The notes: generated by a model not told the origin, from the sequence alone. A DNA stretch of 64,000 bases from Acidimicrobiales bacterium (GCA_020630065.1 JAHDCC010000001.1:175566-239565); one strand, 5' to 3'; positions 1,056 to 32,798 are shown, counted from the first letter of the stretch. A program made the numbers and translations.

Positions 1056-2138
1056 TTAGAAATCTTCGTCGAAGCTGACGCTTCCTTCGACTCCTGTTTG
1101 GTATGCCGAAACAGTGCGCTCAAAGAAGTTGGTCAGTTCCTGAACATCTTGGAGTTCCATAAAGTCGAATGGGTTCTTCGAACCGTAGATCGTGGACATA
1201 CCCAGTTGTCGAAGTCGTTGATCAGCCACGTATTGCAAATATTCTCGGGTATCGGCCAGGCTCATACCTTGGACACCTTCGACTAGCACATCGGCGGCGA
1301 ACTGGTATTCACACTCGACGGCTTCGCGGATCATTTCTTCGATCTGGGCTGATAGGTCAGCGTCGAACAGGTCTGGTTCTTCTGCCCGAACAGTGTTCAC
1401 GACCTCTAACGCAAAGTTCATGTGGCACGACTCGTCCCGGAACACCCAGTTGGTTCCTGACGCTAGGCCGTTGAGCAGACCTTTTGAACGTAAGAAGTAG
1501 ACGTAGGCAAAGGCGGCGAAGAAAAACAGTCCTTCAATACAGGTGGCGAAACAAATAAGGTTGAGCAGAAACTTCTTACGAGACTCTTTCGAGTCTGTTT
1601 CTTCCAGAGAGTTGATCGAGTCGATCCATTTGAAACAGAATTCGGCTTTTTGGCGGATCGACGGAATGTTCTCTACAGCCGCGAACGCTTCTGCCCGCTC
1701 CTCGTGATCAGGAATATAGTTGTCGAGCAATGTGAGATAGAACTGGACGTGTAACGCTTCTTCGTAAAGCTGGCGTGACAGGTACATGCGAGCTTCGGGG
1801 GCGTTAATGTGCTGATACAGGTTGAGTACCAGGTTGTTGGCGACGATCGAGTCGCCGGTAGCGAAGAAGGCAACCAGTCGATTCACCAGATGCTGTTCAG
1901 CTGGCATGAGCTTAACCCGCAAGTCAACAAGGTCGTCGGAGAAATCGATCTCGTCGACTGTCCAAGTGTTCTTGATTGCGTCCTGGTACATCTCGTAGAA
2001 GACGGGGTAACGCATTGGTCTGAGCGTTAAATCGAAACCAGGATCCAAAATGTTCTTTGGTTTAGTGGAAGCTTGGGCGTCAGCGTCAGCGCCCTCTACA
2101 GATTCCAGGTTTTGAAACGGCTCGTCGACCAATGCCAT
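1056..2138 (-). CDS. nrdB: Ribonucleoside-diphosphate reductase beta subunit (class I)
   Basis: 360 aa; ferritin-like metal-ligand pattern (EALHVQFY, DESCHMNFA) and location directly downstream of nrdA. Confidence 0.93.
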   Translation of the reverse strand: MALVDEPFQNLESVEGADADAQASTKPKNILDPGFDLTLRPMRYPVFYEMYQDAIKNTWTVDEIDFSDDLVDLRVKLMPAEQHLVNRLVAFFATGDSIVANNLVLNLYQHINAPEARMYLSRQLYEEALHVQFYLTLLDNYIPDHEERAEAFAAVENIPSIRQKAEFCFKWIDSINSLEETDSKESRKKFLLNLICFATCIEGLFFFAAFAYVYFLRSKGLLNGLASGTNWVFRDESCHMNFALEVVNTVRAEEPDLFDADLSAQIEEMIREAVECEYQFAADVLVEGVQGMSLADTREYLQYVADQRLRQLGMSTIYGSKNPFDFMELQDVQELTNFFERTVSAYQTGVEGSVSFDEDF

Positions 2139-2260
2139 CGGCTTAAATTCCTTTACTTCGTCTTCTGTGGGTAGGCCGCACTAAATAGCGCTGCCAGGTT
2201 TGTACGGTGTGGTTGTTGTTGAGTAGTGGCCTAGTTGTATGCGACGGTTTAGACCGTCAA

Positions 2261-4696
2261 CTAGTCACAGGCTTCGCAAGTCTCAGGATTTTCTAGAGAG
2301 CATGCAATCACTTCAGCCTCGGTAAAGGTATTTGAGGTAGAAGTGTCGTTGGTAGTGGTTGTCTTATTGATGCGTGTCGCTGGGCGAGAGCGCAGGTAGT
2401 ACGTGGTTTTCAAACCAGACTTCCATGCGTGCATGTACATCGAAGACAGTTTACCAATTGTGGGCGATTCCAGGAAGAGATTCAACGACTGGCTCTGATC
2501 GATGTATGCGCCGCGGTCGGCGGCCATGTCGATAAGGGCTCGTTGGGGAACTTCCCATGCCGTGCGGTAGATCTCTTGTAGGTCTGCTGGGATTCGGTCA
2601 ATGCCTTGGACCGAACCTTCAGACGACTTCAAGTCGTTGATCATTTTGGCGTCCCACAAACCTCGTTCTTGTAGTTCGTTCACGAGGTAACGGTTGATTT
2701 GTAGAAACTCGCCGGACAACGTTTCACGCTTGAAAAGATTAGAGACCTGCGGTTCGATACATTCGTAGCAGCCAGTTATCGATGCGATAGTCGCGGTAGG
2801 AGCAATCGCAATGAGTAGCGAGTTTCGTAGACCGTGTTCGGCGATTCGGTCACGTACTTTCTGCCAACGACCAACATCGGTTGGTTCAACGTTCCAAAGA
2901 TCAAACTGTAGATCCCCGGCAGCTGCTCGGGTTCGTTGGAACGTCTCGTGTGGACCGCTTTCTTCAGCGAGTTCGGTCGACGCCCAAAGGGCGTTGTAGT
3001 AAATCTCTTCAGAGATTCGAGCCGACAATTTCCGAGCTTCAGCTGAATCGAAAGGTAAACCGAGTTTGAAGAAGACGTCTTGGAGACCCATCAAGCCAAG
3101 ACCGACCGGTCGCCACTTCGAATTCGAGTTGGCTGCCTCGTCGGTGGGGTAGAAGTTAATGTCTACTACTCGGTCGAGGAATGGGACTACGTGACGGACC
3201 GTTTCGGCCAGCCGTTCGAAGTCGAACTCGTTAGATTTTGCATCTACGAATGCCCCCAGGTTGACCGAGCCGAGATTACAGACAGCGGTTTCGTCTTGGT
3301 CTGTTACCTCAAGAATTTCGGTGCAAAGGTTGGAGAGGTGAACGACATGAGCGCCGGTGTTTTCACCGTCTGGTTTCCAGCCGGTCTGGTTGCATTTCTC
3401 GTTGGATGCGTCTTTGAACGTCATCCAACCGTTGCCGGTTTGGGCTAGTGAGCGCATCATGCGACTGTAGAGGTCGCGTGCGCTTACTTGGCGGTCATAG
3501 AGTTTCTTTGACTCGGCTTCTTCGTAGGCTTCGCGGAACTCTTCACCGAAAAGGTCGGTTAGGTGAGGCACTTTCTTCGGGTCGAAGAGCGACCATTGCC
3601 AGTCTTTGTCGACTCGCTCCATAAAGAGGTCAGGGACCCAGTTAGCGAGGTTGAGGTTATGGGTTCGTCGTTGATGATCACCGGTGTTTTCGCGCAGATC
3701 AAGAAATTCTTCGACGTCGGCGTGCCACGATTCGAGGTAGACACAAGCGGCACCTTTACGGCGACCGCCTTGGTTAACTGCAGCTACCGAGGAGTCTAAG
3801 GTCTTGAGCCATGGCACGATGCCCGATGACAAGCCATTGGTTCCGCGGATAAGGGAACCTTTGGCTCGGATGCGGTGCCAGGCCACGCCGATACCGCCGG
3901 CGAACTTTGAGAGGCGAGCAATGTCGGAGTATCGCTTGTAGATACCTTCAAGACTGTCCTCAGGAGAGTCCAGCAGGTAGCAGGACGACATTTGAGCGTG
4001 GGTGGTTCCCGAGTTGAACAGTGTTGGGCTCGACGGAAGGTAGGTGAGCGACGACATGAGATCATAGAATTTGATCGCTTCGTCAGCGTCTTTGGAAAGG
4101 CCACAAGCCACCCGCAGGAAGAAGTATTGGGGGGTCTCTAGAACCTGTCGAGTTTCTGGATGACGGAGTAGGTAGCGGTCATAGACCGTTCGAAGCCCGA
4201 AGAATTCGAAGTTGCGGTCACGGTCGGAGCTGATAGCGGCGTTTAACGACGGACCATGTTCGGTCACGAATGCGGCTACTTCGTCACTGATCAGGTCGGC
4301 GGCGTGGCCAGCTGCGATCGACTCAGAGAACCAGGGAATGTTCTGATTACGAACTTCTTTATCTATATAGGTGGAAAGAAGTCGTGCGGCGAGTTTTGAA
4401 TAATTTGGTTCTTCAACGATGAAACCGGCAGAGGTTCGTATAGAAAGTTCGTCGAGTTCCCGAGTGGTGGCTCCGTCTGACAGCGCCGAGATGGTGCGAG
4501 TGGCGACTCTCATTGGGTCTACGTTGAGCAGACCTTCGGAGCAGCGTGCAACTGCGTTGACGATTTTGTTGAGGTCGACGGGCTCGAGGGCGCCGTTTCG
4601 TTTTTTAACACGCATTTCCGTGCCAGTTGTCTCGCTCTGCGCATGATCGGGTGCGCTGAGTGAGGTCGAGGAAGTGCCTTCTTCAGTAATGGTCAT
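2261..4696 (-). CDS. nrdA: Ribonucleoside-diphosphate reductase alpha subunit (class I)
   Basis: 811 aa; N-terminal ATP-cone (RVKKRNGALEPVDLNKI), NLCTEI, PTATIASITGCYECIEP, C-terminal redox CEACD. Confidence 0.95.
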   Translation of the reverse strand: MTITEEGTSSTSLSAPDHAQSETTGTEMRVKKRNGALEPVDLNKIVNAVARCSEGLLNVDPMRVATRTISALSDGATTRELDELSIRTSAGFIVEEPNYSKLAARLLSTYIDKEVRNQNIPWFSESIAAGHAADLISDEVAAFVTEHGPSLNAAISSDRDRNFEFFGLRTVYDRYLLRHPETRQVLETPQYFFLRVACGLSKDADEAIKFYDLMSSLTYLPSSPTLFNSGTTHAQMSSCYLLDSPEDSLEGIYKRYSDIARLSKFAGGIGVAWHRIRAKGSLIRGTNGLSSGIVPWLKTLDSSVAAVNQGGRRKGAACVYLESWHADVEEFLDLRENTGDHQRRTHNLNLANWVPDLFMERVDKDWQWSLFDPKKVPHLTDLFGEEFREAYEEAESKKLYDRQVSARDLYSRMMRSLAQTGNGWMTFKDASNEKCNQTGWKPDGENTGAHVVHLSNLCTEILEVTDQDETAVCNLGSVNLGAFVDAKSNEFDFERLAETVRHVVPFLDRVVDINFYPTDEAANSNSKWRPVGLGLMGLQDVFFKLGLPFDSAEARKLSARISEEIYYNALWASTELAEESGPHETFQRTRAAAGDLQFDLWNVEPTDVGRWQKVRDRIAEHGLRNSLLIAIAPTATIASITGCYECIEPQVSNLFKRETLSGEFLQINRYLVNELQERGLWDAKMINDLKSSEGSVQGIDRIPADLQEIYRTAWEVPQRALIDMAADRGAYIDQSQSLNLFLESPTIGKLSSMYMHAWKSGLKTTYYLRSRPATRINKTTTTNDTSTSNTFTEAEVIACSLENPETCEACD

Positions 4697-5307: not shown

Positions 5308-8300
5308 TTAGTACAAGTGGTAGTGGTCGGCGCAGATCCAACGAGGCATACCGTCACTGGTAACCGAGGACTTATTGGTGTCAAGCGACTGTGTAGTCGG
5401 CGAAATTTTTGTGCGGCGCAAACCACCCAACTCGGGGTACGCCCCAATGTCGTGGATTAGTTCCCGCAAAACTCGCAGCGATGGCGAGTTGTATTCCGCA
5501 CGAAGATCGAGATGATCTTCCAAGTTTGTTGACTGCCGCGTAGGGTCGAGAGTGGCGACTTTGGCGATTGCCTCTGTCGCCTGGATCGAGGCGCGAACCA
5601 TCTCTAGATCATTCTTGTCATACGGTAGTGGAGAGGCAACAGACTCGGCCAGCGTTAGAGCTTGACGAGCGATCGGAGTTAGCTTTAGGGCAGCGGAAAC
5701 GAACTTCAAGTACGGGCTGCACCGTTTGAACCAATCTCGGTCCTTTTTGAATTGGTAAGTCTGATCGCAGGGGTGTGGTTCGTCGACATGTTCACACCAG
5801 AACTGGAGTTTCCACGTTTCAGCGATCCAGCCTCTTGGGTCGAGAACAGTCTGATCTTCAGGGGTAATCGTGACCAATCGGGGAGTGTCGCGTATTTCGG
5901 TGTCGAGTACTTGTAGGACGGCAGAGAAAAACGTGTATTGGTCGGCCTGGATCTCCTGCATCGTCTGGAGCAGGTCAAGCTGGCCCCCTTTCAGATGGTG
6001 TATCCCTTCTGAGGTGTGTTTTACTTCGTCTACGATTCGGCGGATATCTTCGGCTACCGTCGAGGTCGGCACATCGATGAGAAGTTCACTAATGGTTGTT
6101 AGCTGCTTGCAGCTGGCGCAGAACTTTTCGACATCGCCACGGTGATGAAGCTCGACTGAAAGTTCGTCGTAGCTCCAATGGCCGCCACAAAGACCTCCCG
6201 GACCGGTAAATGTTGGGCACATGACCAAATATGTTGGGTCGATTCCAGCCCATTCATCCAACCTTGCTTCGAGACTCGACCGCAGAGCTGAGAAATAGTC
6301 CGATGGTCGTTGCGCCCAAACTGTTAGTTCAATGGTGGAGTTGTTGAGTCGTTCGAACAGCGCCCAAGCATCTTGGGCTGGGTTGTGCAGAACGAGACCG
6401 TCCCGCCACCAGGTGCCCGTCGTGTGAGAGTGGTTGCGGGCGGTTAAGCCAGGTATCAGCCCGAGCCGGCTAGCTTTGCTTCCCAGATCGCACTGCAAAC
6501 GCCGGGTGCGGTACGATCGATGGGAGTCGGGTACACCTAACTCTTCAGGTCGTTCGTGGGGCACCATTTGGGCAACTAACAAGGACTGATCATTAGGCGG
6601 TTCTGGTCGGAACGCGATGCCATAGAGTTGCATGAGTTCCACTAAGAACGGCACCTCAGCCCGTTCATAGATAAACGGTGGGGTTTGCTCTCCGCTCTGG
6701 ACAGGCGGGTTTGACCAAATCTCCCGCAACCGTTCGAGTGTTATCCGTCCATGGTTTACATTCGACGTCTCCGAGTCGTTAAGCACGTAACTGATAGCCG
6801 TCGTCAACCAATCCGGTTTGAGAATGACTTTGCCTTGAAGCTGGGGGTCTTTAAAATAGGTGAGGCGCCCGGCTGTTGAGAGTTTGATAGCGGTGCGTTC
6901 ACAGTCGTCTTCTTGCAATCCCTGTTCACGACCGAGTTCAACAAATTCGCTCCACGAGATCTGTGGCTTGTCTAGTTGATCGACAGAGTTGGACAGTTTT
7001 TGATACGCCAACGGCCACGGCTCATCAGCGGTTCCAAGATCAACGACCTGGTCGAGTATGGCTTTGCGAAGTTCATCGATACCTTCACCCGTCTGATTCT
7101 CGACCGGATAGAAACCAACAATTTTTACCCCGGTTGATCGTTCGAGGTGGGAGATATCGGGTGTCGGGTTGTGGTCGCCACAGTTCGTAGCGACCAACAG
7201 AATACGGGAGCGTCGACCAACTCGAAGTTTGATTCGTTCTAACCAGTCGGTAACGTCGCCCCGTTCTGTTCCTTCTCGACCATGCCAGGCAACGACATAG
7301 ACGGTGTCGGAGCTGAAGAAGAACGGATGGGTGATGCGGTATAGGGCTTGGCCTCCAAAGTCCCAGTAGCGTAACGTGTAATCTTTCTTCTGATAGTTCT
7401 CGATCTGAACACCCAGTTCGATGCCATGGGTGCTCGGTCGGGTCACAAACCCTTTGCGGCAGAGTTGGGCAACAAGACTTGTTTTGCCAACCGCACCCTC
7501 CCCGAGGACCAGAACTTTTGCTTGACCGAACCGGGTAGAGCCTTCTTTTTGGTTTTGTAGCCATCGCCCGAGTCCGTCTGTGCCCTGACGGTTTACTACC
7601 GCCTGGAAATCTGGAGACCAAGGGTTACCGGTGGCCGAAAACTTCTCCAAGTTATCCAAACTGGTGAGAGCTAATGGAAGCCGATTTAACTGGTTGCCAT
7701 CTATATGTAGGACCGCCAGGCCGTGAAGATTTCTGGCGATTGCCTCAGCCCCGGTGTTAGTGATGCCGTTGTTGTTGAGACGCAGATGGGTGAGGCCGCT
7801 TAGGTGGCGGGCGATGGCGTCCACCCCAGCGTTGGTGATCCCGTTGCCGGTCAGGTCGAGATGAGTTAAATGCGGCAAGTTTCTGGCGATAGCGCGAGCC
7901 CCGAGATTCGTGACGTTGTTGTCTCCGAGGTATAGCCTCTGAAGACCGCTGAGATTGTAGGCAATAGTTTCTGCCCCGACTTTGGTCAGCTGGTTTTCGC
8001 TGAGGTAGAGACGTTCCATATTGTGAAGCTTGTTTGCGATCGCTTTTGTTCCGGTGTCGCTCACATGGTTGTCGTTGAGGCCTAGATGGACCAGTTGAGT
8101 TAACCCGGACGCGATTGCCTCCGCTCCCGCATCGGTAATATCGTTCTCATCGAGATGAAGCTGCACCAGATCGGTGAGAGTGGCCGAGATAGCTTTGACC
8201 CCATCGTCGGTGATGTTGTTCTTGTTGAGTCCGAGATGTGTGAGATGGGGTAGGCCTTGGGCGATAGCTTGGGCACCGACATCGGAAATGTCATTGCCGC

Positions 8301-9075
8301 CCAGTCCGAGGTAGGTCAGGTCCGATAACCCGTCCGATAACGCGGCTGCTCCTGAGTCATCTATATCGTTTCTGCTTAGATGAAGATGTGTTAGGTGCGA
8401 CAGATTTTTAGCTATAGCTTCGGTTGTCAGCGACGTAACCGAATTTCCGCTCAGCCCAAGATGGGTTAGTTGCGAAAGGTGATAGGCGACGGCTTCTGCG
8501 CCTGCGTCGGTAATGTCGTTGTTGCCGAGATACAGCCTACGAAGATGCCGAAGGTTCTTCGCGATTGCTTCGGCCCCCATGTCGGTTAACCCGTTGCTGT
8601 AAATATCGAGCTCGGTCAACTTTGGTAGATGTTCGGCAATGGCGGTGGCGCCTATATCTGTGATGTTGTTATGAAGTAGCGTTAGCCGTGTAAGTTGTGG
8701 CAGATTCTGGGCGATGGTTTGTGCCCCAACATCGGTGATTGTATTGCGACCCAAATCGAGGTAGGTCAGATTGGGTTGGCTCAGGGCGAGCTGCTCGATC
8801 TCGTCGTCATTGATAGAGAACCCAACGATGGCGACATTAACCAAATTGTTGGCGGAGAGCTGTTCGATCGTCGACGCTAAGTCGTTGGTTTGGTTAGCCT
8901 TGACGAAATATAGGCATTCGAATTCTCTGGCGATGTTACGCAGATAGTGGCGACTCCAACTGGCTGCAGATCCCGTTGCAACGAAAATGGATGTAGCGGT
9001 TGGGTTGGGCTCGATGTCGTCAAGATTGTCTAACTGGATGGTTCTCGCGGCGTCGAGATCATTATTCATGCACAC
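5308..9075 (-). CDS. LRR-Roc-COR (ROCO family) GTPase
   Basis: 1255 aa; about 14 tandem 25-aa LRRs (LTHLGLSGNSxTDxGAEAIAxNL), Roc P-loop GEGAVGKTSLV, switch DFGGQ, COR-like region, Cys-rich insertion (CPTFTGPGGLCGGHW...FCASCK). Confidence 0.88.
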   Translation of the reverse strand: MCMNNDLDAARTIQLDNLDDIEPNPTATSIFVATGSAASWSRHYLRNIAREFECLYFVKANQTNDLASTIEQLSANNLVNVAIVGFSINDDEIEQLALSQPNLTYLDLGRNTITDVGAQTIAQNLPQLTRLTLLHNNITDIGATAIAEHLPKLTELDIYSNGLTDMGAEAIAKNLRHLRRLYLGNNDITDAGAEAVAYHLSQLTHLGLSGNSVTSLTTEAIAKNLSHLTHLHLSRNDIDDSGAAALSDGLSDLTYLGLGGNDISDVGAQAIAQGLPHLTHLGLNKNNITDDGVKAISATLTDLVQLHLDENDITDAGAEAIASGLTQLVHLGLNDNHVSDTGTKAIANKLHNMERLYLSENQLTKVGAETIAYNLSGLQRLYLGDNNVTNLGARAIARNLPHLTHLDLTGNGITNAGVDAIARHLSGLTHLRLNNNGITNTGAEAIARNLHGLAVLHIDGNQLNRLPLALTSLDNLEKFSATGNPWSPDFQAVVNRQGTDGLGRWLQNQKEGSTRFGQAKVLVLGEGAVGKTSLVAQLCRKGFVTRPSTHGIELGVQIENYQKKDYTLRYWDFGGQALYRITHPFFFSSDTVYVVAWHGREGTERGDVTDWLERIKLRVGRRSRILLVATNCGDHNPTPDISHLERSTGVKIVGFYPVENQTGEGIDELRKAILDQVVDLGTADEPWPLAYQKLSNSVDQLDKPQISWSEFVELGREQGLQEDDCERTAIKLSTAGRLTYFKDPQLQGKVILKPDWLTTAISYVLNDSETSNVNHGRITLERLREIWSNPPVQSGEQTPPFIYERAEVPFLVELMQLYGIAFRPEPPNDQSLLVAQMVPHERPEELGVPDSHRSYRTRRLQCDLGSKASRLGLIPGLTARNHSHTTGTWWRDGLVLHNPAQDAWALFERLNNSTIELTVWAQRPSDYFSALRSSLEARLDEWAGIDPTYLVMCPTFTGPGGLCGGHWSYDELSVELHHRGDVEKFCASCKQLTTISELLIDVPTSTVAEDIRRIVDEVKHTSEGIHHLKGGQLDLLQTMQEIQADQYTFFSAVLQVLDTEIRDTPRLVTITPEDQTVLDPRGWIAETWKLQFWCEHVDEPHPCDQTYQFKKDRDWFKRCSPYLKFVSAALKLTPIARQALTLAESVASPLPYDKNDLEMVRASIQATEAIAKVATLDPTRQSTNLEDHLDLRAEYNSPSLRVLRELIHDIGAYPELGGLRRTKISPTTQSLDTNKSSVTSDGMPRWICADHYHLY

Positions 9076-9346
9076 AAACTACACGAGGCCGATGACGTTT
9101 TGAGGCCGGTCTCCCGAATGTTAGGGATAAATAGGTCTGGTTATGCAACTTTAGGTGACCAGTCTTAACTAGACGAGAAGAATCCAGTCTTGGTCCTGGG
9201 CCGTCGCTGTTCTTGATTTCACCGCGATGGGTGATTCCGGCGAAACGAAGCTCGTCCCAGAACTTAAGAACCATGTCAATTAGCTACTACCGGATCGTTG
9301 TGACCGTTTACGTCTGTGGAGCGTATTCTGACACTGTTGTCTAAAT

Positions 9347-11434
9347 TCAACCTGGCATCGCTCTAATCAGAGTTTTCATCGCATATATATCGCTGAGCCG
9401 TCGTCGGATCACCGATTGAGACAGTTTCGGGGGTAATGCCTGAGCGAACTTTAAACCCTCGATGATCTGTTGATCTGGCTCAAATTTCTGAGCGTCGAAA
9501 GGGATCGAAGAAATAGCGTAGCGCACATCTTTAATAGTGGTGCCTGAGTCAATAGGAATCATGAAGTTGTCTATCATTCCGCCTTCAAGTCTATATCTGT
9601 GAAGACGGGCAGCGATTTCGAGATTCGCTCGAATCCCAGCGAAGGACCATAGTTGAGTGCCTCGATCAGTCTGTACAACAGAGATTGGACCACCCTGCTT
9701 GGCCGACGGACCAAATCCGATCCGCTGTTCATCAAGTTTCTTGTGTGCCCTGGCAGATAATGGCACGTCGACGGGATCCCCTGCCAGTACAGCTCGTATT
9801 GACTGACAGAGCTCATAGCCTAAAGGTTGGGAATCACCTAAGAATCGGATCTTTCCACCTTCCGTTATCGGTGTAACGAGAATGACCCGTCGGTTCCAAT
9901 CAATATCTTCGATCAACCAATGTCGACCGGCTAGCAGCAGCCTCCGTCCGTTAGTCTGCGCCGCCGCTAGTGCGGCGTCAGGTACTTGTCCGATATCGTT
10001 CCTACCTGAACGGACAGTGAATACCGGTTCGCTCGTGAATGCGCTCATGAGTTCCATGAAATGACGCCTCCCAAAAGCCGCTTCGCCTTGATCTCCGAAT
10101 CCAATTCGCCCTTGGTCAGAGAAGAGGACGTTTTCGGACAACATGAACTGCAGTATTCGTTCTGCTTCACTCTCAACGTGGTTCCCGAAGACATGTGGAT
10201 CGCCAAGCCACTGTTTCAAATCGGTTATGCCGAGCCCTGGTTCTTGGAGTGCTAAGGCCATCATCTGCTGCGCCAGTAGGTGAGCAGGAAATTCTGGCGC
10301 TTCGACTGGTTCCACAAATCCGTTGTTCCATAGCTTTAGAAGACCAAGTGTCTGACGAAACGCATCGTCTTTCGTGGCGAGAAAGAGTGCATTTCGTGTA
10401 CTGCCAGGTCTGCGTCCAGTCCGCCCTAGGCGTTGGAGAAACGAGGCGACTGTAGCTGGTGCATCGATTTGTATTACGCGGTCTAAGTCTCCAATGTCAA
10501 TTCCTAGTTCGAGTGTGCTCGTAGCTACGATTACACAGTTTTGTGTTTCTGAGAATGCCTGCTCGGTTCGTAGCCTTTCGGCCCTGCCCAGGGATCCGTG
10601 AGATACGAAAGTAGTAACGTCGCGTTCGGTTAGAAGTGCCGTTAGCTCTTCGGCCCTAGCTCGTGAATCGACGAACACTAATCGCTTCTCTCCAAGATGG
10701 AGTTTTGAAATCACCATGGCTGCGTTTATCAGCGAACCAACCCAATCGACTTCGACGTCAACCTCATCAGTTATTGTCTCAGCTGTTGGGGCGATTACAC
10801 CTCGTCTAGCTTTTGTTCCTCGGCACAACCATTCGAGTAGCTCGTCAGGGTTCCCAACGGTTGCGGACAATCCGAGACGTTGAATTTCTCTGCCCGCTAA
10901 TTTCGATATTCGTTCGAGGACAGCTAGTAGGTGCCAGCCTCGGTCGTCGCTAGCAAAGGCGTGAACCTCGTCGATCACGATGGTTTGGACGTTCCGAAAG
11001 AACCTATGTGAATCGACTCGTTTGGAGATCAGCATCGATTCTAATGATTCCGGTGTGGTCAGAAGAATATCTGGCGGATCGGTGAGGATATGTTTGCGCG
11101 CAGTTGGGCTTATATCGCCGTGCCACAAGGCAGATCGACACCCAACGAAACCTGTGTATTGTTCGAGTCTTGGAAGTAGGTTGTTCAGAAGTGCCTTTAG
11201 CGGGGCTATGTAAAGCACTGAGGGTGGCGCCAGTGACTTGGCTGCTATGAGGCTAACCACAGGAAAACTTGCGGCTTCGGTTTTACCTCCTGCTGTGGGT
11301 GCTAGAAGCAAGGCGTGTTCACCGTTAAGCACCGGTTCGATAGTTGCTTCTTGGAGCGGTCTCAACTTACGCCAGCCAAGTGTATTGACGATGTGATGCT
11401 GCAATGACGGGTGGAGCTGATCGAAGACCGCCAT
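9347..11434 (-). CDS. brxHI: BREX-2 associated DEAD/DEAH helicase BrxHI
   Basis: 695 aa; LLLAPTAGGKTEAA (Walker A), DEVHAF (motif II), SATVGNP, QRLGRTGRRPG (motif VI); last gene of the six-gene Pgl/BREX-2 order. Confidence 0.85.
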   Translation of the reverse strand: MAVFDQLHPSLQHHIVNTLGWRKLRPLQEATIEPVLNGEHALLLAPTAGGKTEAASFPVVSLIAAKSLAPPSVLYIAPLKALLNNLLPRLEQYTGFVGCRSALWHGDISPTARKHILTDPPDILLTTPESLESMLISKRVDSHRFFRNVQTIVIDEVHAFASDDRGWHLLAVLERISKLAGREIQRLGLSATVGNPDELLEWLCRGTKARRGVIAPTAETITDEVDVEVDWVGSLINAAMVISKLHLGEKRLVFVDSRARAEELTALLTERDVTTFVSHGSLGRAERLRTEQAFSETQNCVIVATSTLELGIDIGDLDRVIQIDAPATVASFLQRLGRTGRRPGSTRNALFLATKDDAFRQTLGLLKLWNNGFVEPVEAPEFPAHLLAQQMMALALQEPGLGITDLKQWLGDPHVFGNHVESEAERILQFMLSENVLFSDQGRIGFGDQGEAAFGRRHFMELMSAFTSEPVFTVRSGRNDIGQVPDAALAAAQTNGRRLLLAGRHWLIEDIDWNRRVILVTPITEGGKIRFLGDSQPLGYELCQSIRAVLAGDPVDVPLSARAHKKLDEQRIGFGPSAKQGGPISVVQTDRGTQLWSFAGIRANLEIAARLHRYRLEGGMIDNFMIPIDSGTTIKDVRYAISSIPFDAQKFEPDQQIIEGLKFAQALPPKLSQSVIRRRLSDIYAMKTLIRAMPG

Positions 11435-11438
11435 AGAG

Positions 11439-12755
11439 CTAGATGTCCAGTTCTATATCGTTCACCGATGACGGCAGCAGGGCAGCTTGTTCTTCGACTG
11501 TGAGCTCATTGCTGGAGACGGTCAACTTGTAGTCTCGCCGAGGATCGAAGTCTTCAAGCTGATCAACTCGGTCCAAAACGTCAGCCACAAGTTTCTTAAG
11601 AAATACTCTCGGCGCAACGCCAACTTTTCCGCCGAGACCCCCGGTCACTGCGTTCGCCAGTTCTGCTATGTACACGTCGTCGCACAAACTGCGAATTGGA
11701 TCTGGGTTGCTAGCGCCGTCGGCATAGATATCTCGTACTTTTATACCGACCTCGACAAGCGAGTCGACCGTGAAGCCTGGTAGTCGGATCTGGATAGCTC
11801 TCGGGTTATCGAATTTGGCTGGTGTGCTGAAGTCCGTGGCGAGACGGCTAGCTAGGGCTTCCGCTCGGTTGACTCCTTGCGGTCCGTCATAGAACGCTGG
11901 CGTTCCGGTAATGATGAGATACAGACCAGGGAATCGTCCCGAGTCGACCTCGTCGACGAGTTGCCGCAACGCGTTGAGGCCTTTGTCGCGCACGTCAGTC
12001 CGTACACGTTGGATCGTTTCAACCTCGTCAAGTACCACTAGTAGACCTGGGTGCCCTGCGTCTTTGAGAACAACGAGCAGCGCTTGGAGAAATGACAGCG
12101 CACCAAAATGGTCGAGGTCGCCTTTGATGCCAGCTTTTCGTTTGATGTCAGCGGCCACGTTTGGCTGTCCTCCGAGCCATGCGATGAGCCCATCAGCTGT
12201 CGCTCCGTCACCTGCGGTCACGGCGGTGCGGTATCCTCGCAGTACGGCTGCGAACATTGGTGCTTCTCTTGTGATGTTTCCGAGTCGGCTCTCGGCAAGT
12301 TCGTTCGCAGCAGCGTTCAAAGCTTCGGTATCGGATTCGTCGATATCGCCTTGAGCCAACACGTCTTCTTCGAGAGCGTAGAACCAAGCGTCGATAACCG
12401 TTCGGAGCCCTCCTTTAGCGACTGTCGAAGTCGAAAGTCGTTCAACTATTCGACGATAGACGGTTTCTAAACGGTGGAGCGGAGTTTCACTTTCGCTAAT
12501 CTGCACTTCGCTGGTAGCGAACCCTTGAGATTTGGCTTGTTCAGCTAACCATCGGGTCAGGAAAGTTTTGCCCGACCCGTATTCACCTCTGACGCATTTA
12601 AAAACACCTGACCCTGAGGCCGCACTTTTAAGTTCTTCGTCAAGCGCTCCTTCAAATCGGTCCAGTCCAACAGCGAGTGCGTCCAACCCTGCACGAGGTA
12701 CGGTGCCGTTACGTAAGGCGCGGATTGTCTCTTGTCGTCGGAGTTCGGAAAGCAT
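11439..12755 (-). CDS. brxD: BREX system ATP-binding protein BrxD
   Basis: 438 aa; GEYGSGKTFLTRWLAEQA and LLVVLDEVETIQR; position between pglZ and brxHI. Confidence 0.85.
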   Translation of the reverse strand: MLSELRRQETIRALRNGTVPRAGLDALAVGLDRFEGALDEELKSAASGSGVFKCVRGEYGSGKTFLTRWLAEQAKSQGFATSEVQISESETPLHRLETVYRRIVERLSTSTVAKGGLRTVIDAWFYALEEDVLAQGDIDESDTEALNAAANELAESRLGNITREAPMFAAVLRGYRTAVTAGDGATADGLIAWLGGQPNVAADIKRKAGIKGDLDHFGALSFLQALLVVLKDAGHPGLLVVLDEVETIQRVRTDVRDKGLNALRQLVDEVDSGRFPGLYLIITGTPAFYDGPQGVNRAEALASRLATDFSTPAKFDNPRAIQIRLPGFTVDSLVEVGIKVRDIYADGASNPDPIRSLCDDVYIAELANAVTGGLGGKVGVAPRVFLKKLVADVLDRVDQLEDFDPRRDYKLTVSSNELTVEEQAALLPSSVNDIELDI

Positions 12756-12783: not shown

Positions 12784-15447
12784 TCATAGATCTAGTCCGA
12801 ATTGTGTTATTGCTAAATCTGAGTCGAGCATAATGGTATGGCCGTCATCAGCGAGCACTCCATAGCCGTCGATGTTCAGAATTTTCATGGCCGATGCAAG
12901 AACGCCGCGGAGTCTCGCTAGCGGGATTCCTGTTGCCGCCGATAGTTCTTCGTGAGCTAGGCGATTTCCGTTTTTCTGAAGCGCGTCCAGCAGCTCGCCT
13001 AGGCGTTGGTCTTGAACCGCTCGGCTGCCTGCCGCTGCCCGTTGAAGTTTGAGCAGTTCGGATCCTAGCAGTTCTTCAATCCAGCCTTCTGTGGTTACCC
13101 CATTGGGTGTTTCAAACAGTGACCCCTGTGGCGCTGACTCTGCTACGTCACTGAGTCTCACAGCGATTTCGGGTGCCTCGTCTTGTTCGGTCTTTCGGGT
13201 GGCTGGATTAACCCCGAGCGACCACCATGTGGGTTCGTCGTGTGGCGTTGCGTCCCAACCTTTGGGTGTGTCTTTTGCTGTCGTGAGTATGTCGAGTGGA
13301 ACGAGCACTTCTTGGGGAGTCGCTCCTCCGTGGTACCCATTTCGGCGGCCGGACGAATAGCGCATTTGTTCGACCCAGGGCATAAGTACTGTTCCGTTGT
13401 TTGCTAGCGTTCGGGGGCCTGATACTCGAACTTCTTTTTCGCTAGGTTCGCCGACGTTCGGTCTCCATCGTTCCTTCGCTCCTCGTATTACGTGCGCTTC
13501 GGTATCGACATCTAGAACGTGTCCGTGGTCTGCGGTGATAACAACAGTTCTCCCGCTAGACACTGCTCTCTCAAGCAAGTGGCCGAGCGGTGATATCGTA
13601 TCGACGGCCCACGCAGGCCGAACTTGGTCGCCTTTGAGTAGATGGTCGTCGATTGCGTTGACTACACATCCCACGATTTTTTGTTCGGGGTCTTCGATCA
13701 CCTGTTGGACCTCGTCGGCGATTCCGCCTCCGTCTGACCGTGAAAGGTCGCCTTTATGGAATAGACGAGGTGGTTTTTTCTTGTTTGACTGACGAAGGAG
13801 ACTCTTGTTGTCTGTAAATTTTCGCTTCTCGGTTTTTTGGTCTCCAGCAGTCAATTCTCCTGCAAGCAGCGATGTTCGAGAGAGTTCGGTCACGGTCGGG
13901 AACGTCGTGTAACACGGCAGGTTGACTTGCCCGCCGCTATCAACGATTCGATACCAACCTCGTCGAGCTAGGTCGGCGCGAAGTTGATGCCAAACATCCC
14001 AACCCATCCCGTCCATCACGAGAACAAGAACGGGGCTGGTTGCAGCTACTGGGGCGACTACCTGTTCCAGTACCTCTTCGATACCGAGAATCGATTTGGT
14101 TTCTCCTTGGTCCCAGGCTTCTATCAGACGACCAAATTCTTTGTTTTCTTGGGATCGACGTTCGTCGCATCTTTTAATGAGTTGAGCGTATGCTTTAGCG
14201 ATTGTTGGTTCAGGGTCTTGCTCATTCTGGAGTACCCGTCTGGCGTAGTCAACCCAGCCGCTTGAGTTTCGGTAACCCAAACCGGCTTCGTTTAGGTTCA
14301 CATAGTTGGAAGGTTCGGTTTGTAGCCACTGTGCCAGACGTACTCCCATTTCGGCTTGTCTGGTTCGCCGGATTTCTGTGTTGGCGAGGCGGTGGTTTCG
14401 CACAGCGGCTAGTAGGGGCAATATGTCTTCTGGCTTAGCCTCAGTATTTAACAATGATAGCAGACCGCTTCCCAGGGAAGATAAAGTGGCTTTGAAACCT
14501 CCGGGTAGAAGATGGCTGGCTGCCGCTAGCTCTTTGCCGTCTAGGTCGCGCAGAAGCGTATCAGCTGCTGCGAGCGTCAGCGATGGGTCTTCGCCCCGTT
14601 GGGTCATTTCGTTGATAACGGTTTCTGATGCTTCTCCCCATTGAGTTCCAACTGCCGGAGCAAGTTTTCGCCCTCCGATATGTTGCTTGAACTCGGCGGC
14701 ACATGCTGCCGATTGGTTGTTTCCGTGTTGTGCCATAATTGCCCCTGCGACCACGCCAAGAGCAACTAGGTCGGTATTGGATCGTTGATCACCTCGTAAC
14801 GCGGCCAAGAGTTCCGGTGCGAATGAGACTGACATAACAAGTCGATCGTTGAAAAAGGAGTCGACGAGTTGGGTTGGGGCGCTCAACACTCTGGTTCGGT
14901 TATCTGGCTCGTTGAGCCAGGCTAGTAGCGAACTTTCGTCTAGGACGATCTTTGTGAGGCCTAGGTGGTGATCTATTAGTGTGCGATATGCGTGTTCTTC
15001 TAGCAGTACGCGCCCGGTTATCTTTGGGTAACCGCCTGATGGTGCGGCGTCGATCAGTTGGTTGATGACCATCTGATTTCCTGATAGTCGGGGGTCGAGC
15101 TGAACGGCTCCGAATAGTTGGAGTACTGCGTCTTTCCGGTCGGACGACCTTGGTCGGCCTGTCGCTAGTCGGGCGCATACATCGGTTCCGAGCGTTTCTT
15201 TTGTCTGCTCGGTCAATATGATCAGTGGATTTTCTTTTTTATGGGAGAGTTTATCTCTGACAGCTAGAACCGATTCGCAGGCAGCGATTTCGAATGTTTT
15301 GCCTTGTACCGACAGTTCGGGCGGTCCAGACCATTCGGGCCGGGCGAGTATCGCTATTGCATCTGGCGGGAAGTCGTGATCGAATTCGGACGCTAGCGAG
15401 GCTACTATCGTTTCAACTTCGCGGCGAGAAACTGGGGGGAAGCTCAC
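12784..15447 (-). CDS. pglZ: BREX-2 phosphatase-like PglZ
   Basis: 887 aa; PglZ alkaline-phosphatase-like signatures VLVMDGMGWDVW, YTTFPTVTELSRTSLLAG, VVITADHGHVLD; 4-bp overlap with pglY. Confidence 0.9.
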   Translation of the reverse strand: MSFPPVSRREVETIVASLASEFDHDFPPDAIAILARPEWSGPPELSVQGKTFEIAACESVLAVRDKLSHKKENPLIILTEQTKETLGTDVCARLATGRPRSSDRKDAVLQLFGAVQLDPRLSGNQMVINQLIDAAPSGGYPKITGRVLLEEHAYRTLIDHHLGLTKIVLDESSLLAWLNEPDNRTRVLSAPTQLVDSFFNDRLVMSVSFAPELLAALRGDQRSNTDLVALGVVAGAIMAQHGNNQSAACAAEFKQHIGGRKLAPAVGTQWGEASETVINEMTQRGEDPSLTLAAADTLLRDLDGKELAAASHLLPGGFKATLSSLGSGLLSLLNTEAKPEDILPLLAAVRNHRLANTEIRRTRQAEMGVRLAQWLQTEPSNYVNLNEAGLGYRNSSGWVDYARRVLQNEQDPEPTIAKAYAQLIKRCDERRSQENKEFGRLIEAWDQGETKSILGIEEVLEQVVAPVAATSPVLVLVMDGMGWDVWHQLRADLARRGWYRIVDSGGQVNLPCYTTFPTVTELSRTSLLAGELTAGDQKTEKRKFTDNKSLLRQSNKKKPPRLFHKGDLSRSDGGGIADEVQQVIEDPEQKIVGCVVNAIDDHLLKGDQVRPAWAVDTISPLGHLLERAVSSGRTVVITADHGHVLDVDTEAHVIRGAKERWRPNVGEPSEKEVRVSGPRTLANNGTVLMPWVEQMRYSSGRRNGYHGGATPQEVLVPLDILTTAKDTPKGWDATPHDEPTWWSLGVNPATRKTEQDEAPEIAVRLSDVAESAPQGSLFETPNGVTTEGWIEELLGSELLKLQRAAAGSRAVQDQRLGELLDALQKNGNRLAHEELSAATGIPLARLRGVLASAMKILNIDGYGVLADDGHTIMLDSDLAITQFGLDL

Positions 15448-18400
15448 GAGTTGTGAATCTCCCAGGTGATCGTCACCTGCTGGTCTGGTTGAAGGCTTGA
15501 CTTTAGGTCGGTGACGAATGCGTCAAGTTCTTCGCGTGCTAGTTTTTTCTGGCTAGATAGATGTTCGGTGGTTCCCGTGCGTGGCTGGTGATGGTCTGAG
15601 ACTATTTCGGCTGATGTTGAAGTAAGCGCAGGCTTCGATGAGACGGCGGCTAGCACTATTGCGCCTGCCCGGTTGCTGACCTCTGGGAGTTTACCTGCCA
15701 GCGACACTGAGAATTCGTCTCGTTCCGCTGTTTGAGTGATTGTTTGTGTTAGTTCAGAACCCTCTGTGCTGATTTCGGCAGATTTCTTGACGAAGTCCCA
15801 GTTGGTGTTTCGAATTGCTGATGTAACTGCTTTTGAGCTTTTTATTGATGTGCCTAACGCTTGCGTCGAAGTCGGAACATTGACTTCTTGGAGGCGTGTA
15901 ATAATTTCTATGGGCTCGACGTTTTCTGTGAGCTGGCCAATGAGGGCGGCTGATGCCTCGCTGGTTTGAACCCGGTCGGAGTTGTCGTCGATACCTAGGT
16001 TCTCTCGGTGCTGGTTGAGTGTTTCTCGAAGCGTTTTGACGTCCTCTTTATACGTCCGTGCGTGTGTCGCTGCGTCATTTGCGAGCTTGGCTACGTTTTC
16101 GGCGCTGCGGTATTCGGCTCCGTTCCAGCCGAAAATGCTCTGGGCGTTGATTATGGCTGCGGCCCAAACTTCGTTGCTCGGTAACGTTTGCTGTTCTAGC
16201 TGGTAGTCGTCTTCGAGCCGTTTTACGTCGACGAGTTGCGGTTCGCCTCCATAAGTAAATGAGTGATCGGTTTGAAGTGCGAAGGTGGCGATCACCAGGT
16301 TGGCGGATTCTTTTGTAAGGCCTCGTCGTGCTGGTTCGTCTAGTCTTTCTCGAAGCCAGCCGACAGTGGGGGTAAAGTCGCCGCTGTCTTCGAGTTCTTT
16401 GGCTATCGCTGCGGTCAACCTGTTTTTCCAGGTGTCGGCGAGGACAAAGTGGTTCGCTTCGGTTATCCCGAGTTCTAGTGGTGTGGCTATTCGTAGCATC
16501 AAGTCTCGGAGATGTTTTTCTGTTCCGAAGAATTCGAGTCTTCCGTTTGGTTCTTGTGCGGAGCGTTTTATTTGTTCCCAGACTTTGACGATGTCGGCGG
16601 GTTTGATTTCGGACGAAAATTTTGGGTGTGCGGGTAGCTGGAATGAGAGTAGTTGGTCGCTTAGTCGGTCGAGTGCGTCGGCTAAGGTGGCTGCTGCGGG
16701 TCGTTGTGGTGTTAGTCCGTGGTGGAGCGAAGCGAATTGTTCGTTGGCATCTAGTGGTTCGTCTATATGGCGGGTTGGCCCGGACACTACTTTGATTGCA
16801 TAGGCTTCTTCGAGAGCAGCTAGAAGTTCACCTTTGAGATTTTGGGCTTGTGACGCAAGGTTGCGTTTGGCTAGTGCCCGGTCGTCTTGTGGTAGGTGGC
16901 CAGCGTTGCGTTCGAAGTTGTCGCCTGCGTTGAGGTGGTCGAGCATGACTAGGCGACCGAGTTGTTCTAGTGTCGCTTCATTTAGGTGTGACGGTACCCA
17001 GCAGATCGTAGTTGTGTCTGGCCGTTCTGATTGAAGGTTGTTGACTCGGGCGATGTCGTCTTTGGCTACGTGTGAGACTTCTGGGTCAAACGGGAAGTCG
17101 ATAACAATTTTTGGGTGTTGGTCTGCATCGAACTGGTCGTCGGGTAAGTCTTCTTGCGACCGGATGTTTCCGAAGACGATTTCGATTTGGCGTTTGGTGC
17201 CTCGCCAGGTGACGTGGTGCCGGTTTGCCGTGAAGAGGTCGGCTTCTTCGATCGCTCCGGCTAGAAGATCTCGGACTTTGCGTCGTCTGGCGTTGATTGT
17301 GTCTTCACCTTTGACTCCTGCGACGATGGTTTCAATGTCTATGCCGTGTAGTCGTAAGCCGATGCGGGGGTTGGTGTTTTCGCCGGTTAGTTCGAATTCG
17401 CCAATGCCGTTTGATGCTAGCCATCTGAACAGGTCGATGACTTGGGATATTTCGTCGCCGGGGATGAACGATTGCACCGAGCCTGCGTTTAGCGCTTCGA
17501 GTTTTGAGGCGGTCAGGTTTTGCAGCGCTGGGGTTGCCGGTACGAGGGCGGCGAGGATGACGGTTTTGGTTAGACGGTCGTCTGCATGGAACGCATGGTT
17601 TGGTGGTAGTTGTTTGACTGCTGGTTCGCCGTCGAGGCTGTGTCGTGCTAGCAGTTTGGGTCGTATTTTGTTGTTGTACATCGCCTTGGCGTTGTCGAAC
17701 TGGAGTTGCATTGTCGGTGAGAAGGGCTGGTCTTCGGATGCGATGACGTCGTAGAGTTCGCCGACTGGTATGAGTTCACCTACGCTGAGTGTTTCTCGCT
17801 GGTTTACTAGCAGTGCCTGCATTACTTTGAGGGCGGTTCGGTTGCGTTGCAGTATTGAGCTGACGTCCACAAGCGTTGTTATCAGTGCGGGTGAGAATGG
17901 GTAGACGAGTTTGGCGTGTTGTCGGCGTTCGGTTTCGGCCCCGAGTAGTACGTCTGCTGCGGCGGCGTTTTGTTTGAAGGCGTCTTCGAACGCTTGTTGT
18001 ATGGTCTTCGCTGCGGTTTCGTTGACTGGTTGCAGCATTCGCCGGTTGGCGATTACCGGCAGGTTTTTGTCTTCGAGGGTTATGGTTTCGAAGCGGCCTT
18101 CCCACCATTCGAGGGCGGCGAAGAAGTCTGCTTGGTCTTGGCCGGTTGCCCCTCCGGCGAGTTCTCGGAGTATGCGTTGGCGGGCGATGAAACTGACGAT
18201 GGGTATCGGTCGGTCGGCGTCGCCTGATTCTACGAGTTTTGCTAGCTTTGATCCTTCTTCTCGGGCCCACGCAAGGTCAGCTTTAACTCGGCCTGCGAGC
18301 CACAGGATTAGTTCGTCGAGGAAGAGTACTAGTGCGTCGTATCCAAGGCTTCGGGCGTGTTTGGTGATGATGCTGAGGCCTTCGTCTATCGGTACGTAGC

Positions 18401-19118
18401 CGCCGTGCAGGCCTTGGAAAGCGGTGAGGACTGTTGAAACGACTCTTGAGATGAGGGCTAATCGTGTCTCGTCTTGTCCAGTCGCTGCGACTGCTGTGTC
18501 GAATCGTTCGGCGTTCCAGCCGGAACTCATTTTGCCCCATTTGGCTCCGCCATTTGGTTGGCTGCCTCCGTTGAGCTTGGCGAAGAACGCTTCGTCGCCC
18601 ATTGTTTGACGTAGTTGGATTGCGTTGTCGAGCACTAGGTCTGATTGGTGCACTGCAGGTAGTGGGGCTTCGGGGTGTTCTTTGCGGATCCAGTCGATGT
18701 ATCCGCCGAAGATAGCGGCTTCAAGGTTTTCGGCGCCTATTAGGTGGTAGGGAATTAGGAGGAATTTGTTTTGTTTTAGCCAGCTGTCGTTGGCGGCGAT
18801 TACGGGGCTGAGTTCGTGAATGCTTCGGGCGTGTGGGTCGCCTGCTAGTAGGAGGTCGAGTACTGCCATGAAGTGGCTTTTACCGGAACCGAAGCTGCCG
18901 TGCAGGTAGGCTGCTTTTGATCTGGGGATTCCGTCACTAACTCCTAGGGAGTCGCGAATCATTGTGAGTGCTTTGTTGAAACTGTCGACGAGTTGGTCGG
19001 TGACGACGTAGTCTTGTACCGTTTTTTCGGCTTGTTCGACTCCGGAGGTGAGTGCGAGTACGTAGTCGCCGCCAGATGTGTGGTCGGGGATGTTGATGAG
19101 GTCTTTGATGAGTGTCAT
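15444..19118 (-). CDS. pglY: BREX-2 ATPase PglY
   Basis: 1224 aa; YLHGSFGSGKSHFMAVLDLLL Walker A; position between pglX and pglZ. Confidence 0.9.
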   Translation of the reverse strand: MTLIKDLINIPDHTSGGDYVLALTSGVEQAEKTVQDYVVTDQLVDSFNKALTMIRDSLGVSDGIPRSKAAYLHGSFGSGKSHFMAVLDLLLAGDPHARSIHELSPVIAANDSWLKQNKFLLIPYHLIGAENLEAAIFGGYIDWIRKEHPEAPLPAVHQSDLVLDNAIQLRQTMGDEAFFAKLNGGSQPNGGAKWGKMSSGWNAERFDTAVAATGQDETRLALISRVVSTVLTAFQGLHGGYVPIDEGLSIITKHARSLGYDALVLFLDELILWLAGRVKADLAWAREEGSKLAKLVESGDADRPIPIVSFIARQRILRELAGGATGQDQADFFAALEWWEGRFETITLEDKNLPVIANRRMLQPVNETAAKTIQQAFEDAFKQNAAAADVLLGAETERRQHAKLVYPFSPALITTLVDVSSILQRNRTALKVMQALLVNQRETLSVGELIPVGELYDVIASEDQPFSPTMQLQFDNAKAMYNNKIRPKLLARHSLDGEPAVKQLPPNHAFHADDRLTKTVILAALVPATPALQNLTASKLEALNAGSVQSFIPGDEISQVIDLFRWLASNGIGEFELTGENTNPRIGLRLHGIDIETIVAGVKGEDTINARRRKVRDLLAGAIEEADLFTANRHHVTWRGTKRQIEIVFGNIRSQEDLPDDQFDADQHPKIVIDFPFDPEVSHVAKDDIARVNNLQSERPDTTTICWVPSHLNEATLEQLGRLVMLDHLNAGDNFERNAGHLPQDDRALAKRNLASQAQNLKGELLAALEEAYAIKVVSGPTRHIDEPLDANEQFASLHHGLTPQRPAAATLADALDRLSDQLLSFQLPAHPKFSSEIKPADIVKVWEQIKRSAQEPNGRLEFFGTEKHLRDLMLRIATPLELGITEANHFVLADTWKNRLTAAIAKELEDSGDFTPTVGWLRERLDEPARRGLTKESANLVIATFALQTDHSFTYGGEPQLVDVKRLEDDYQLEQQTLPSNEVWAAAIINAQSIFGWNGAEYRSAENVAKLANDAATHARTYKEDVKTLRETLNQHRENLGIDDNSDRVQTSEASAALIGQLTENVEPIEIITRLQEVNVPTSTQALGTSIKSSKAVTSAIRNTNWDFVKKSAEISTEGSELTQTITQTAERDEFSVSLAGKLPEVSNRAGAIVLAAVSSKPALTSTSAEIVSDHHQPRTGTTEHLSSQKKLAREELDAFVTDLKSSLQPDQQVTITWEIHNS

Positions 19119-27094: not shown

Positions 27095-27111
27095 GGATGT
27101 ATGGTGATTCA

Positions 27112-29348: not shown

Positions 29349-30223
29349 TGGTAACTCGAGGGTATTCACCCGAAAAACGCACCGAAGCTCTAATCGAAGC
29401 ACTTCCCTATATTCAACGATTTTCCGAAGCGATCGTCGTTGTCAAATTCGGGGGCAATGCAATGGTCGACCCTGACCTTAGCCGAACCTTCGCCGAAGAT
29501 ATTGTGCTGCTGCGATCGGTAGGCCTCCGCCCGGTAGTCGTCCACGGAGGCGGACCGCAAATTGGGGAGCAACTATCCAAAGTTGGAAAAACCACCGAGT
29601 TTCGAAACGGACTCCGCGTCACTGACCACGAAACCCTCGACGTCGCTCGAATGGTGCTCGTCGGCAAAGTAGGTCGCGAGATCGTAGGTCAAATCAACAC
29701 CCACGGTGCCTACGCCGTTGGTATTTCAGGAGAAGATGGCGGTCTAATCACCGCAGAAGCTCTTGACCCTGATCTCGGTTTCGTCGGACGAATTACCGAT
29801 GTAAACCCGAACATCGTCGAACGGCTACTAGCCGAGGACCTAACTCCAGTCATCTCCTCTATAGGCGCCGACGGAAAAGGTCAGTCATACAACATCAACG
29901 CCGACACGATAGCGGGGGCGATCGCCGGTGCGCTCGGCGCAGAAAAAGTGATATATCTGACCGACACCTCTGGGTTGTTGGATGACGTCGACGACGTTGA
30001 ATCCCTCATAGCCCGAACCAGCGTCGAAGAACTAAAACAAAAACTCGACGCCGGCGAAATCGGTGGAGGCATGTTGCCCAAACTGACCTCGTGCGTAGAT
30101 GCGTTAGAGACCGGGGCTTCCTCAGCCCACCTCCTAGATGGGCGGATACCACATGTTCTGCTCCTCGAACTTTTCACCGACGCCGGTATCGGAACCATGA
30201 TCACGAAAGAACCCCAACAATGA
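29348..30223 (+). CDS. argB: Acetylglutamate kinase
   Basis: VVKFGGNAMVD, PVVVHGGGPQI, GGGMLPKL; GTG start. Confidence 0.95.
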   Translation: MVTRGYSPEKRTEALIEALPYIQRFSEAIVVVKFGGNAMVDPDLSRTFAEDIVLLRSVGLRPVVVHGGGPQIGEQLSKVGKTTEFRNGLRVTDHETLDVARMVLVGKVGREIVGQINTHGAYAVGISGEDGGLITAEALDPDLGFVGRITDVNPNIVERLLAEDLTPVISSIGADGKGQSYNINADTIAGAIAGALGAEKVIYLTDTSGLLDDVDDVESLIARTSVEELKQKLDAGEIGGGMLPKLTSCVDALETGASSAHLLDGRIPHVLLLELFTDAGIGTMITKEPQQ

Positions 30224-32793: not shown

Positions 32794-32798
32794 CCCAC

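What the first reader, a model, noticed from the sequence alone, without database searches (positions are those of the whole stretch)
5308..11434. LRR-ROCO GTPase directly downstream of BREX-2 on the same strand
The 1255-aa LRR-Roc-COR protein starts about 270 bp after brxHI with no other convincing gene between. It combines a repeat sensor-like domain, a GTPase and a Cys-rich insertion, an architecture suggestive of NLR-like immune sensors. ROCO is not a canonical BREX-2 component, so this could be an accessory defence gene or a separate system in the same island.
Basis: inference. Interest (0 to 1): 0.72.

Follow-up and report, generated by a model that had tools for sequence, protein, structure and literature searches.

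The report
LRR-Roco immune-type switch beside BREX-2
A bacterial relative of the Parkinson's-disease protein LRRK2 sits right behind a complete BREX-2 anti-phage system; it looks like a self-contained, NLR-like infection sensor built from swappable parts rather than a piece of BREX, and it is a good candidate for testing the predicted but, as far as I found, untested idea that bacterial Roco proteins defend against phages.

Summary
An intact 1255-aa gene (5308-9075, minus strand) encodes N-cap, ~14 leucine-rich repeats, Roc GTPase, COR-A/COR-B, a Cys-rich zinc-ribbon-like segment and a conserved C-terminal domain. It starts 271 bp after brxHI, the last gene of a complete BREX-2 operon, and is followed by nrdAB.

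BREX-2 linkage as such is not conserved: no BREX-2 locus was found at 91 other Roco loci, and no Roco at about a dozen other BREX loci. The closest subfamily (25-31% identity, several phyla) mostly sits among ordinary genes.

But of 298 genomes of the same order only two carry a COR protein, and the other one (G682) is the third gene of a type III restriction-modification operon, overlapping mod by 8 nt. The two share a ribonuclease-inhibitor-type LRR (42% identity) seen in none of 89 other Rocos, yet differ in Roc-COR (25%) and C-terminus (putative metal-binding domain versus two putative membrane helices). LRR genes without Roc-COR occur in both genomes.

Best reading: a modular NLR-like conflict switch of the already predicted LRR/AP-GTPase/COR class (Kaur et al. 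2021), carried as independent accessory defence behind DNA-modification systems. Function is inferred; no experiment supports it.

The parts
5308..9075 (-). LRR-Roc-COR (Roco) gene, 1255 aa
   Evidence: only COR protein in the genome
8776..9075 (-). pre-LRR N-cap (residues 1-100), shared with LRR proteins elsewhere in the same genome
   Evidence: profile of four N-caps from contigs C11, C41, C9 finds it at E=6.6e-7, next best 0.038; alignment
7606..8775 (-). ~14 ribonuclease-inhibitor-type LRRs (residues 101-490; LxxLxLxxNxITDxGAxAIA); 12 fit a strict pattern
   Evidence: 12 RI-type repeats here, 15 in G682, 0 in 89 other Rocos
7180..7518 (-). Roc GTPase (residues 520-632; P-loop GEGAVGKTS begins just upstream, switch II DFGGQ inside)
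   Evidence: Pfam PF08477 1.5e-18; PDB 4wnr, 3dpu
6565..7014 (-). COR-A (residues 688-837)
   Evidence: PF16095 3.1e-23
6076..6462 (-). COR-B (residues 872-1000)
   Evidence: PF25497 2.6e-10
6109..6219 (-). Cys-rich zinc-ribbon-like segment (C953, C963, C986, C989)
   Evidence: mostly conserved in subfamily alignment A3; metal binding is inference
5311..5898 (-). conserved C-terminal domain without a Pfam name (residues ~1060-1255); invariant C1094, H1101, C1248, H1251
   Evidence: no PDB sequence or fold match
9076..9346 (.). 271-bp gap between brxHI and the Roco gene; no promoter- or terminator-like site on the minus strand
9347..11434 (-). brxHI
   Evidence: PDLC02503 4e-271
11439..12755 (-). 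brxD
   Evidence: PDLC02494 1.5e-199
12784..15447 (-). pglZ
   Evidence: PDLC02565 3.1e-229
15444..19118 (-). brxC/pglY
   Evidence: PDLC02488, E=0
19134..22742 (-). pglX
   Evidence: PDLC02529, E=0
22739..26743 (-). pglW
   Evidence: PDLC02512, E=0
1056..4696 (-). nrdA and nrdB (class I ribonucleotide reductase): housekeeping border
27097..35580 (+). arginine biosynthesis genes argC-argH: housekeeping border on the other side

Best explanation
The gene encodes a single-protein, NLR-like conflict switch of the LRR / AP-GTPase (Roc) / COR class, carried as an independent accessory defence gene in the variable slot behind the last BREX-2 gene. Proposed mechanism: the LRR solenoid, taken from a lineage-specific pool of LRR modules, binds an invader-associated or damage-associated ligand; this changes the GTP state and oligomerisation of the Roc-COR switch (for a bacterial Roco GTP-driven monomerisation is published); the switch then releases or assembles the C-terminal domain, which signals or acts as effector, probably to stop growth of the infected cell. 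Shown here: architecture, intact GTPase motifs, Roc-COR homology, a sensor unlike that of other Rocos, C-termini that differ, location behind DNA-modification defence systems in 2 of 2 Rocos found in the order. Inferred: ligand, activation, zinc binding, effector activity, abortive outcome.
For: Domains. Roc-COR model aligns to C. tepidum Roco and LRRK1/2 (E 3.5e-25, whole-query TM ~0.5). COR proteins are rare: 2 of 298 genomes of the order, none of 295 other phylum genomes sampled. The second one (G682, L217) is gene 3 of a type III R-M operon: ResIII helicase, Mod (PDB type III Mod 6k0w, EcoP15I), Roco overlapping mod by 8 nt. Its LRR is 42% identical over 363 aa, its Roc-COR 25%, and it lacks our C-terminal domain. 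RI-type LRRs occur in these two only, of 91 Rocos. Related LRR proteins without Roc-COR lie in both genomes. Other Rocos carry other C-termini, e.g. a CHAT-like one in Nostoc L019 (by eye), and one lies inside a type I-F CRISPR transposon. Prior prediction: prokaryotic LRR-AP-GTPase-COR proteins as counter-invader systems with at least 24 different C-terminal domains (PMC8195603). The slot after brxHI holds other candidate defence genes elsewhere (helicase-REase in L183, AbiEi in L180).
Against: The closest subfamily shows no defence enrichment: among 2 x 117 neighbour ORFs few PADLOC matches, mainly generic kinases and enzymes, and a housekeeping mix in Pfam. The order-level association rests on two loci. 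The C-terminal domain has no recognised catalytic motif and a low-confidence model (pLDDT 62.7), so no effector activity is shown. I found no paper showing phage defence by any Roco (open-access library only).
Confidence: 0.58

Rival explanations
1. A Roco signalling protein with a non-defence role (growth, development, stress) that lies beside BREX-2 by chance.
For: The subfamily with the same C-terminal domain is mostly solitary among housekeeping genes in Cyanobacteria, Streptomyces, Pseudonocardiaceae and others; a neighbourhood is partly shared by L043 and L072; codon usage is host-like.
Against: Single rare gene, not conserved in relatives; the only other Roco of the order is inside an R-M operon; exchanged LRR sensor and varied C-termini fit conflict systems better.
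Confidence: 0.27
2. A dedicated BREX-2 accessory subunit: it senses BREX failure or BREX products and is co-expressed with the operon.
For: Same strand, 271 bp after brxHI, no terminator- or promoter-like site on that strand between them.
Against: BREX genes are spaced by 28 bp or less or overlap, the Roco by 271 bp. No BREX-2 locus at 91 other Roco loci, no Roco at other BREX loci. A survey with 1309 BREX-2 taxa does not mention GTPase, LRR or Roco in its main text (PMC12839542).
Confidence: 0.1
3. A decaying, fast-drifting relic of a Roco gene with no present function.
For: Very long branch (3.18 changes per column) in the tree.
Against: 1255 codons open; P-loop, switch II, Cys-rich segment and all invariant C-terminal Cys/His kept.
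Confidence: 0.05

Closest known systems
Prokaryotic LRR-AP-GTPase-COR counter-invader proteins (Kaur et al. 2021, eLife, PMC8195603)
   Same: N-terminal LRR, Roc, COR, variable C-terminal domain; predicted conflict function
   Different: RI-type LRR module seen in only two of 91 Rocos examined; unnamed Cys/His C-terminal domain (whether it is one of their 24 types could not be checked)
Chlorobium tepidum Roco / Methanosarcina barkeri Roco2 (PDB 6hlu, 3dpu, 4wnr)
   Same: LRR-Roc-COR core, matched by sequence and fold
   Different: about 18-20% identity in the fold alignment; different C-terminus; genomic context not compared
LRRK1/LRRK2 and DAPK (eukaryotic Roco)
   Same: Roc-COR switch (LRRK1/2 tested; DAPK from literature)
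   Different: no kinase domain; different C-terminus
BREX type 2
   Same: adjacent, same strand
   Different: not a core or recurrent component
bNACHT / STAND NLR-like antiphage proteins (e.g. PMC12169576)
   Same: NTPase switch coupled to sensor and effector parts
   Different: Ras-like GTPase with COR, not a STAND ATPase

Membership tests
Roco (LRR-Roc-COR) | Roc GTPase domain with intact P-loop | tested here: met
   PF08477 1.5e-18; GEGAVGKTS
Roco (LRR-Roc-COR) | COR domain directly C-terminal of Roc | tested here: met
   PF16095 3.1e-23 and PF25497 2.6e-10; fold match 6hlu/3dpu
Roco (LRR-Roc-COR) | GTP-driven monomer-dimer switching | not testable with these tools
   needs purified protein
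LRR-AP-GTPase-COR counter-invader system (Kaur 2021) | N-terminal LRR fused to Roc-COR with a C-terminal domain that varies among members | tested here: met
   ours: Cys/His domain; G682: two putative TM helices; L019: CHAT-like (the last two by eye)
LRR-AP-GTPase-COR counter-invader system (Kaur 2021) | rapidly evolving or exchanged LRR sensor | tested here: met
   RI-type LRR in 2 of 91 Rocos; LRR genes without Roc-COR in the same genomes
LRR-AP-GTPase-COR counter-invader system (Kaur 2021) | association with conflict or defence loci | tested here: inconclusive
   2 of 2 in the order; not in the wider subfamily
LRR-AP-GTPase-COR counter-invader system (Kaur 2021) | recognised effector activity at the C-terminus | tested here: inconclusive
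   no Pfam, PDB or fold match
BREX-2 accessory component | recurrent co-location with BREX-2 across genomes | tested here: not met
   no BREX-2 locus at 91 Roco loci; no Roco at other BREX loci
BREX-2 accessory component | co-transcription with brxHI | not testable with these tools
   271-bp gap, no clear signals
NLR (STAND NTPase) | NACHT, NB-ARC or other STAND NTPase domain | tested here: not met
   the NTPase is Roc; no STAND family hit; works-like comparison only

The most novel reading that the evidence does not exclude
In this bacterial order an RI-type LRR sensor cassette is traded between Roco-type switches with different C-terminal effectors, and these receptors are placed behind DNA-modification defence operons (BREX-2, type III R-M) as guards or second-line sensors, triggered when the first-line system is breached.
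Probability: 0.18. Interest if true: 0.82.

Novelty: new variant of a known kind. Interest (0 to 1): 0.5.

Why it matters
Bacterial Roco proteins are structural models for LRRK2, but I found no paper assigning one a phage-defence role. Two Rocos that share a lineage-specific sensor, lie behind different DNA-modification defence systems and end in different C-termini give a concrete, testable case that the Roc-COR switch works as an NLR-like immune receptor in bacteria. The conserved C-terminal domain with four invariant Cys/His, found across several phyla, appears to be unnamed in Pfam.

Tried and rejected
Single-protein scans of genome contigs and viral contigs: no relatives; solved with an alignment of plasmid Rocos. 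Search of relatives with the full protein: apart from the query's own gene, mostly LRR noise. Synteny with relatives to date the insertion: no arg genes in the stretch fetched upstream of nrdA (up to 20 kb) in eight relatives, so no empty site to compare. Codon usage: the Roco is host-like and not closer to BREX than to housekeeping genes. Flanking repeats: the gap regions were searched one by one and show nothing of interest; a repeat shared between the two ends of the island was not tested. DNA tandem repeats in the LRR region: none. Rfam over 1-30000: none. Phage collection: no match. Fold search with the C-terminal domain: nothing at E<=0.001, and the model is poor. C-terminal domain elsewhere in the phylum: only our gene in 346 genomes. 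ORF calling in high-GC loci was unreliable in the first neighbour test, so it was repeated with a GC3-based choice, with the same outcome. My first regular expression for RI-type repeats was wrong and was corrected.

Full report
Observation. The window holds an intact 1255-codon ORF at 5308-9075 on the minus strand. Pfam gives leucine-rich repeats, Roc, COR-A and COR-B, all above curated cut-offs. It starts 271 bp after the stop of brxHI on the same strand; only a 70-aa ORF without family match lies between. The BREX-2 operon is complete and in order: pglW, pglX, brxC/pglY, pglZ, brxD, brxHI. Borders are housekeeping: nrdA/nrdB after the Roco and argC-argH before pglW. So the segment between them consists of BREX-2 plus this one gene.

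Anatomy. Residues 1-100 form a cap before the repeats; 101-490 are about 14 repeats of the ribonuclease-inhibitor type (LxxLxLxxNxITDxGAxAIAxxL); Roc is at about 520-632 with P-loop GEGAVGKTS and DFGGQ; COR-A at 688-837 and COR-B at 872-1000; a Cys-rich segment (C953, C963, C986, C989) sits at the end of COR-B; residues ~1060-1255 are a further domain with invariant C1094, H1101, C1248, H1251 in the subfamily. That these bind zinc is inference. The Roc-COR part of the AlphaFold model matches C. tepidum Roco (6hlu, 3dpu) and LRRK1/2. The C-terminal domain has no Pfam match, no PDB sequence relative and no fold match, but its model is weak (pLDDT 62.7, pTM 0.51).

Relatives. No close Roco relative was found in 98 near genomes (the hits are LRR proteins plus one weak hit over the GTPase region) or in 395 other phylum genomes. 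COR-A is present once in the own genome, in none of 295 other phylum genomes sampled, and in 2 of 298 genomes of the order, ours included. A scan of 84,980 species with an alignment gave 80 Roco loci; 37 of them form the closest subfamily, in which homology runs into or through the C-terminal domain (four were included although contig or ORF end earlier), and most of these proteins end within about ten residues of the same point. They come from Actinomycetota, Cyanobacteriota, Myxococcota, Calditrichota, Chloroflexota, Pseudomonadota and an archaeal bin. In the tree our protein groups with one from Geodermatophilus and one from an actinomycetote bin (100/100), but on a very long branch (3.18), so its exact place is unsure.

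Is it linked to BREX-2? tblastn of all six BREX-2 proteins against 91 Roco loci found only weak generic helicase or kinase matches in four of them and no BREX-2 locus. In the phylum sample I fetched nine loci with brxHI matches, none with a Roco; annotated plasmid BREX loci give the same. What follows brxHI varies: an SF1 helicase with a REase domain on the same strand in another genome of the order (L183), AbiEi in L180, apparently ordinary genes elsewhere. A recent survey with 1309 BREX-2 taxa does not use the words GTPase, LRR or Roco in its main text (PMC12839542; supplements not read). A dedicated BREX-2 partner is therefore unlikely.

Is it linked to defence in general? For the wider subfamily, no: 117 neighbour ORFs from 30 loci, and 117 from nine high-GC loci called by GC3, show few PADLOC matches, mostly generic, and a housekeeping mix in Pfam. 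No matched control set was scored, so this is a description, not an enrichment statistic. One close relative (L026) is beside a divergent TIR-nSTAND1-beta-propeller gene. For the nearest lineage the picture differs. The second Roco of the order, in G682, is the third gene of a type III restriction-modification operon: a ResIII helicase ORF (helicase motifs and a possible nuclease motif read by eye), Mod (PDB matches to type III Mod 6k0w and EcoP15I), then the Roco, overlapping mod by 8 nt. Further on lie a transposase-like ORF, ORFs with PLD-like and SF2-helicase features, and an LRR gene with the same cap as the G682 Roco (product names partly by eye). Two of two is suggestive, not proof.

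Modular sensor. Our LRR is 42% identical to that of the G682 Roco over 363 aa, but Roc-COR is only 25% identical and the C-terminal domain is missing there; instead two putative transmembrane helices end the protein (by eye). A pattern count finds 12 RI-type repeats in ours, 15 in G682 and none in 89 other Rocos, which have 503 of the classic LxxLP type (the pattern was written after seeing our repeats, so it is descriptive). A profile built from caps of other LRR proteins in the same genome finds our cap, with the repeats cut off, at E=6.6e-7, next best 0.038. So the sensor seems to come from a lineage-specific LRR pool, and the switch and tail from elsewhere.

Mechanism. Together with the published prediction that prokaryotic LRR-AP-GTPase-COR proteins are counter-invader systems with at least 24 kinds of C-terminal domain (PMC8195603), the best-supported explanation is an NLR-like one-protein conflict switch. 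The LRR senses, Roc-COR switches (GTP-driven monomerisation of a bacterial LRRK2 homologue is the title result of PMC11052575), and the C-terminal domain signals or acts. Ligand, metal binding, effector activity and outcome are inferences.

Verdict. Observation right; interpretation half right: an independent accessory defence gene is more likely than a BREX partner. Known kind, new variant.

Noticed in passing
L024 (Photobacterium toruni plasmid NZ_CP101696.1) 5284-8022: A Roco gene lies inside a type I-F CRISPR-associated transposon, between a helix-turn-helix gene after tniB and tniQ/csy2.
   Followed up: no
L019 (Nostoc plasmid NZ_CP046713.1) 5955-10562: LRR-Roc-COR protein of 1535 aa whose C-terminus looks like a CHAT caspase-like domain (by eye); an EAD1 gene lies nearby.
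   Followed up: partly
L217 17725-18195 and beyond: LRR gene with the same N-cap as the Roco a few kb away in the same genome: a possible spare sensor cassette.
   Followed up: partly
L105-L108 (IMG/VR contigs): Rocos on predicted viral contigs; the L105 match has the same values as L095 from Halomonas, suggesting a prophage or a mis-called element.
   Followed up: no
L026 3-3017 (-): TIR-nSTAND1-beta-propeller protein divergently beside a close Roco relative.
   Followed up: no
L183 7085-10081 (+): SF1 helicase with REase domain follows brxHI in another genome of the same order: the slot behind brxHI may be a general place for accessory genes.
   Followed up: partly
window 5124-5163: Imperfect inverted repeat GCGGGTATAGACCG/CGGCCTATACCCGC between the Roco and nrdA; no T-run after it.
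   Followed up: no
G000 contigs C11, C41, C9: Family of LRR proteins of the same RI type and N-cap, without Roc-COR, in the window's genome.
   Followed up: partly
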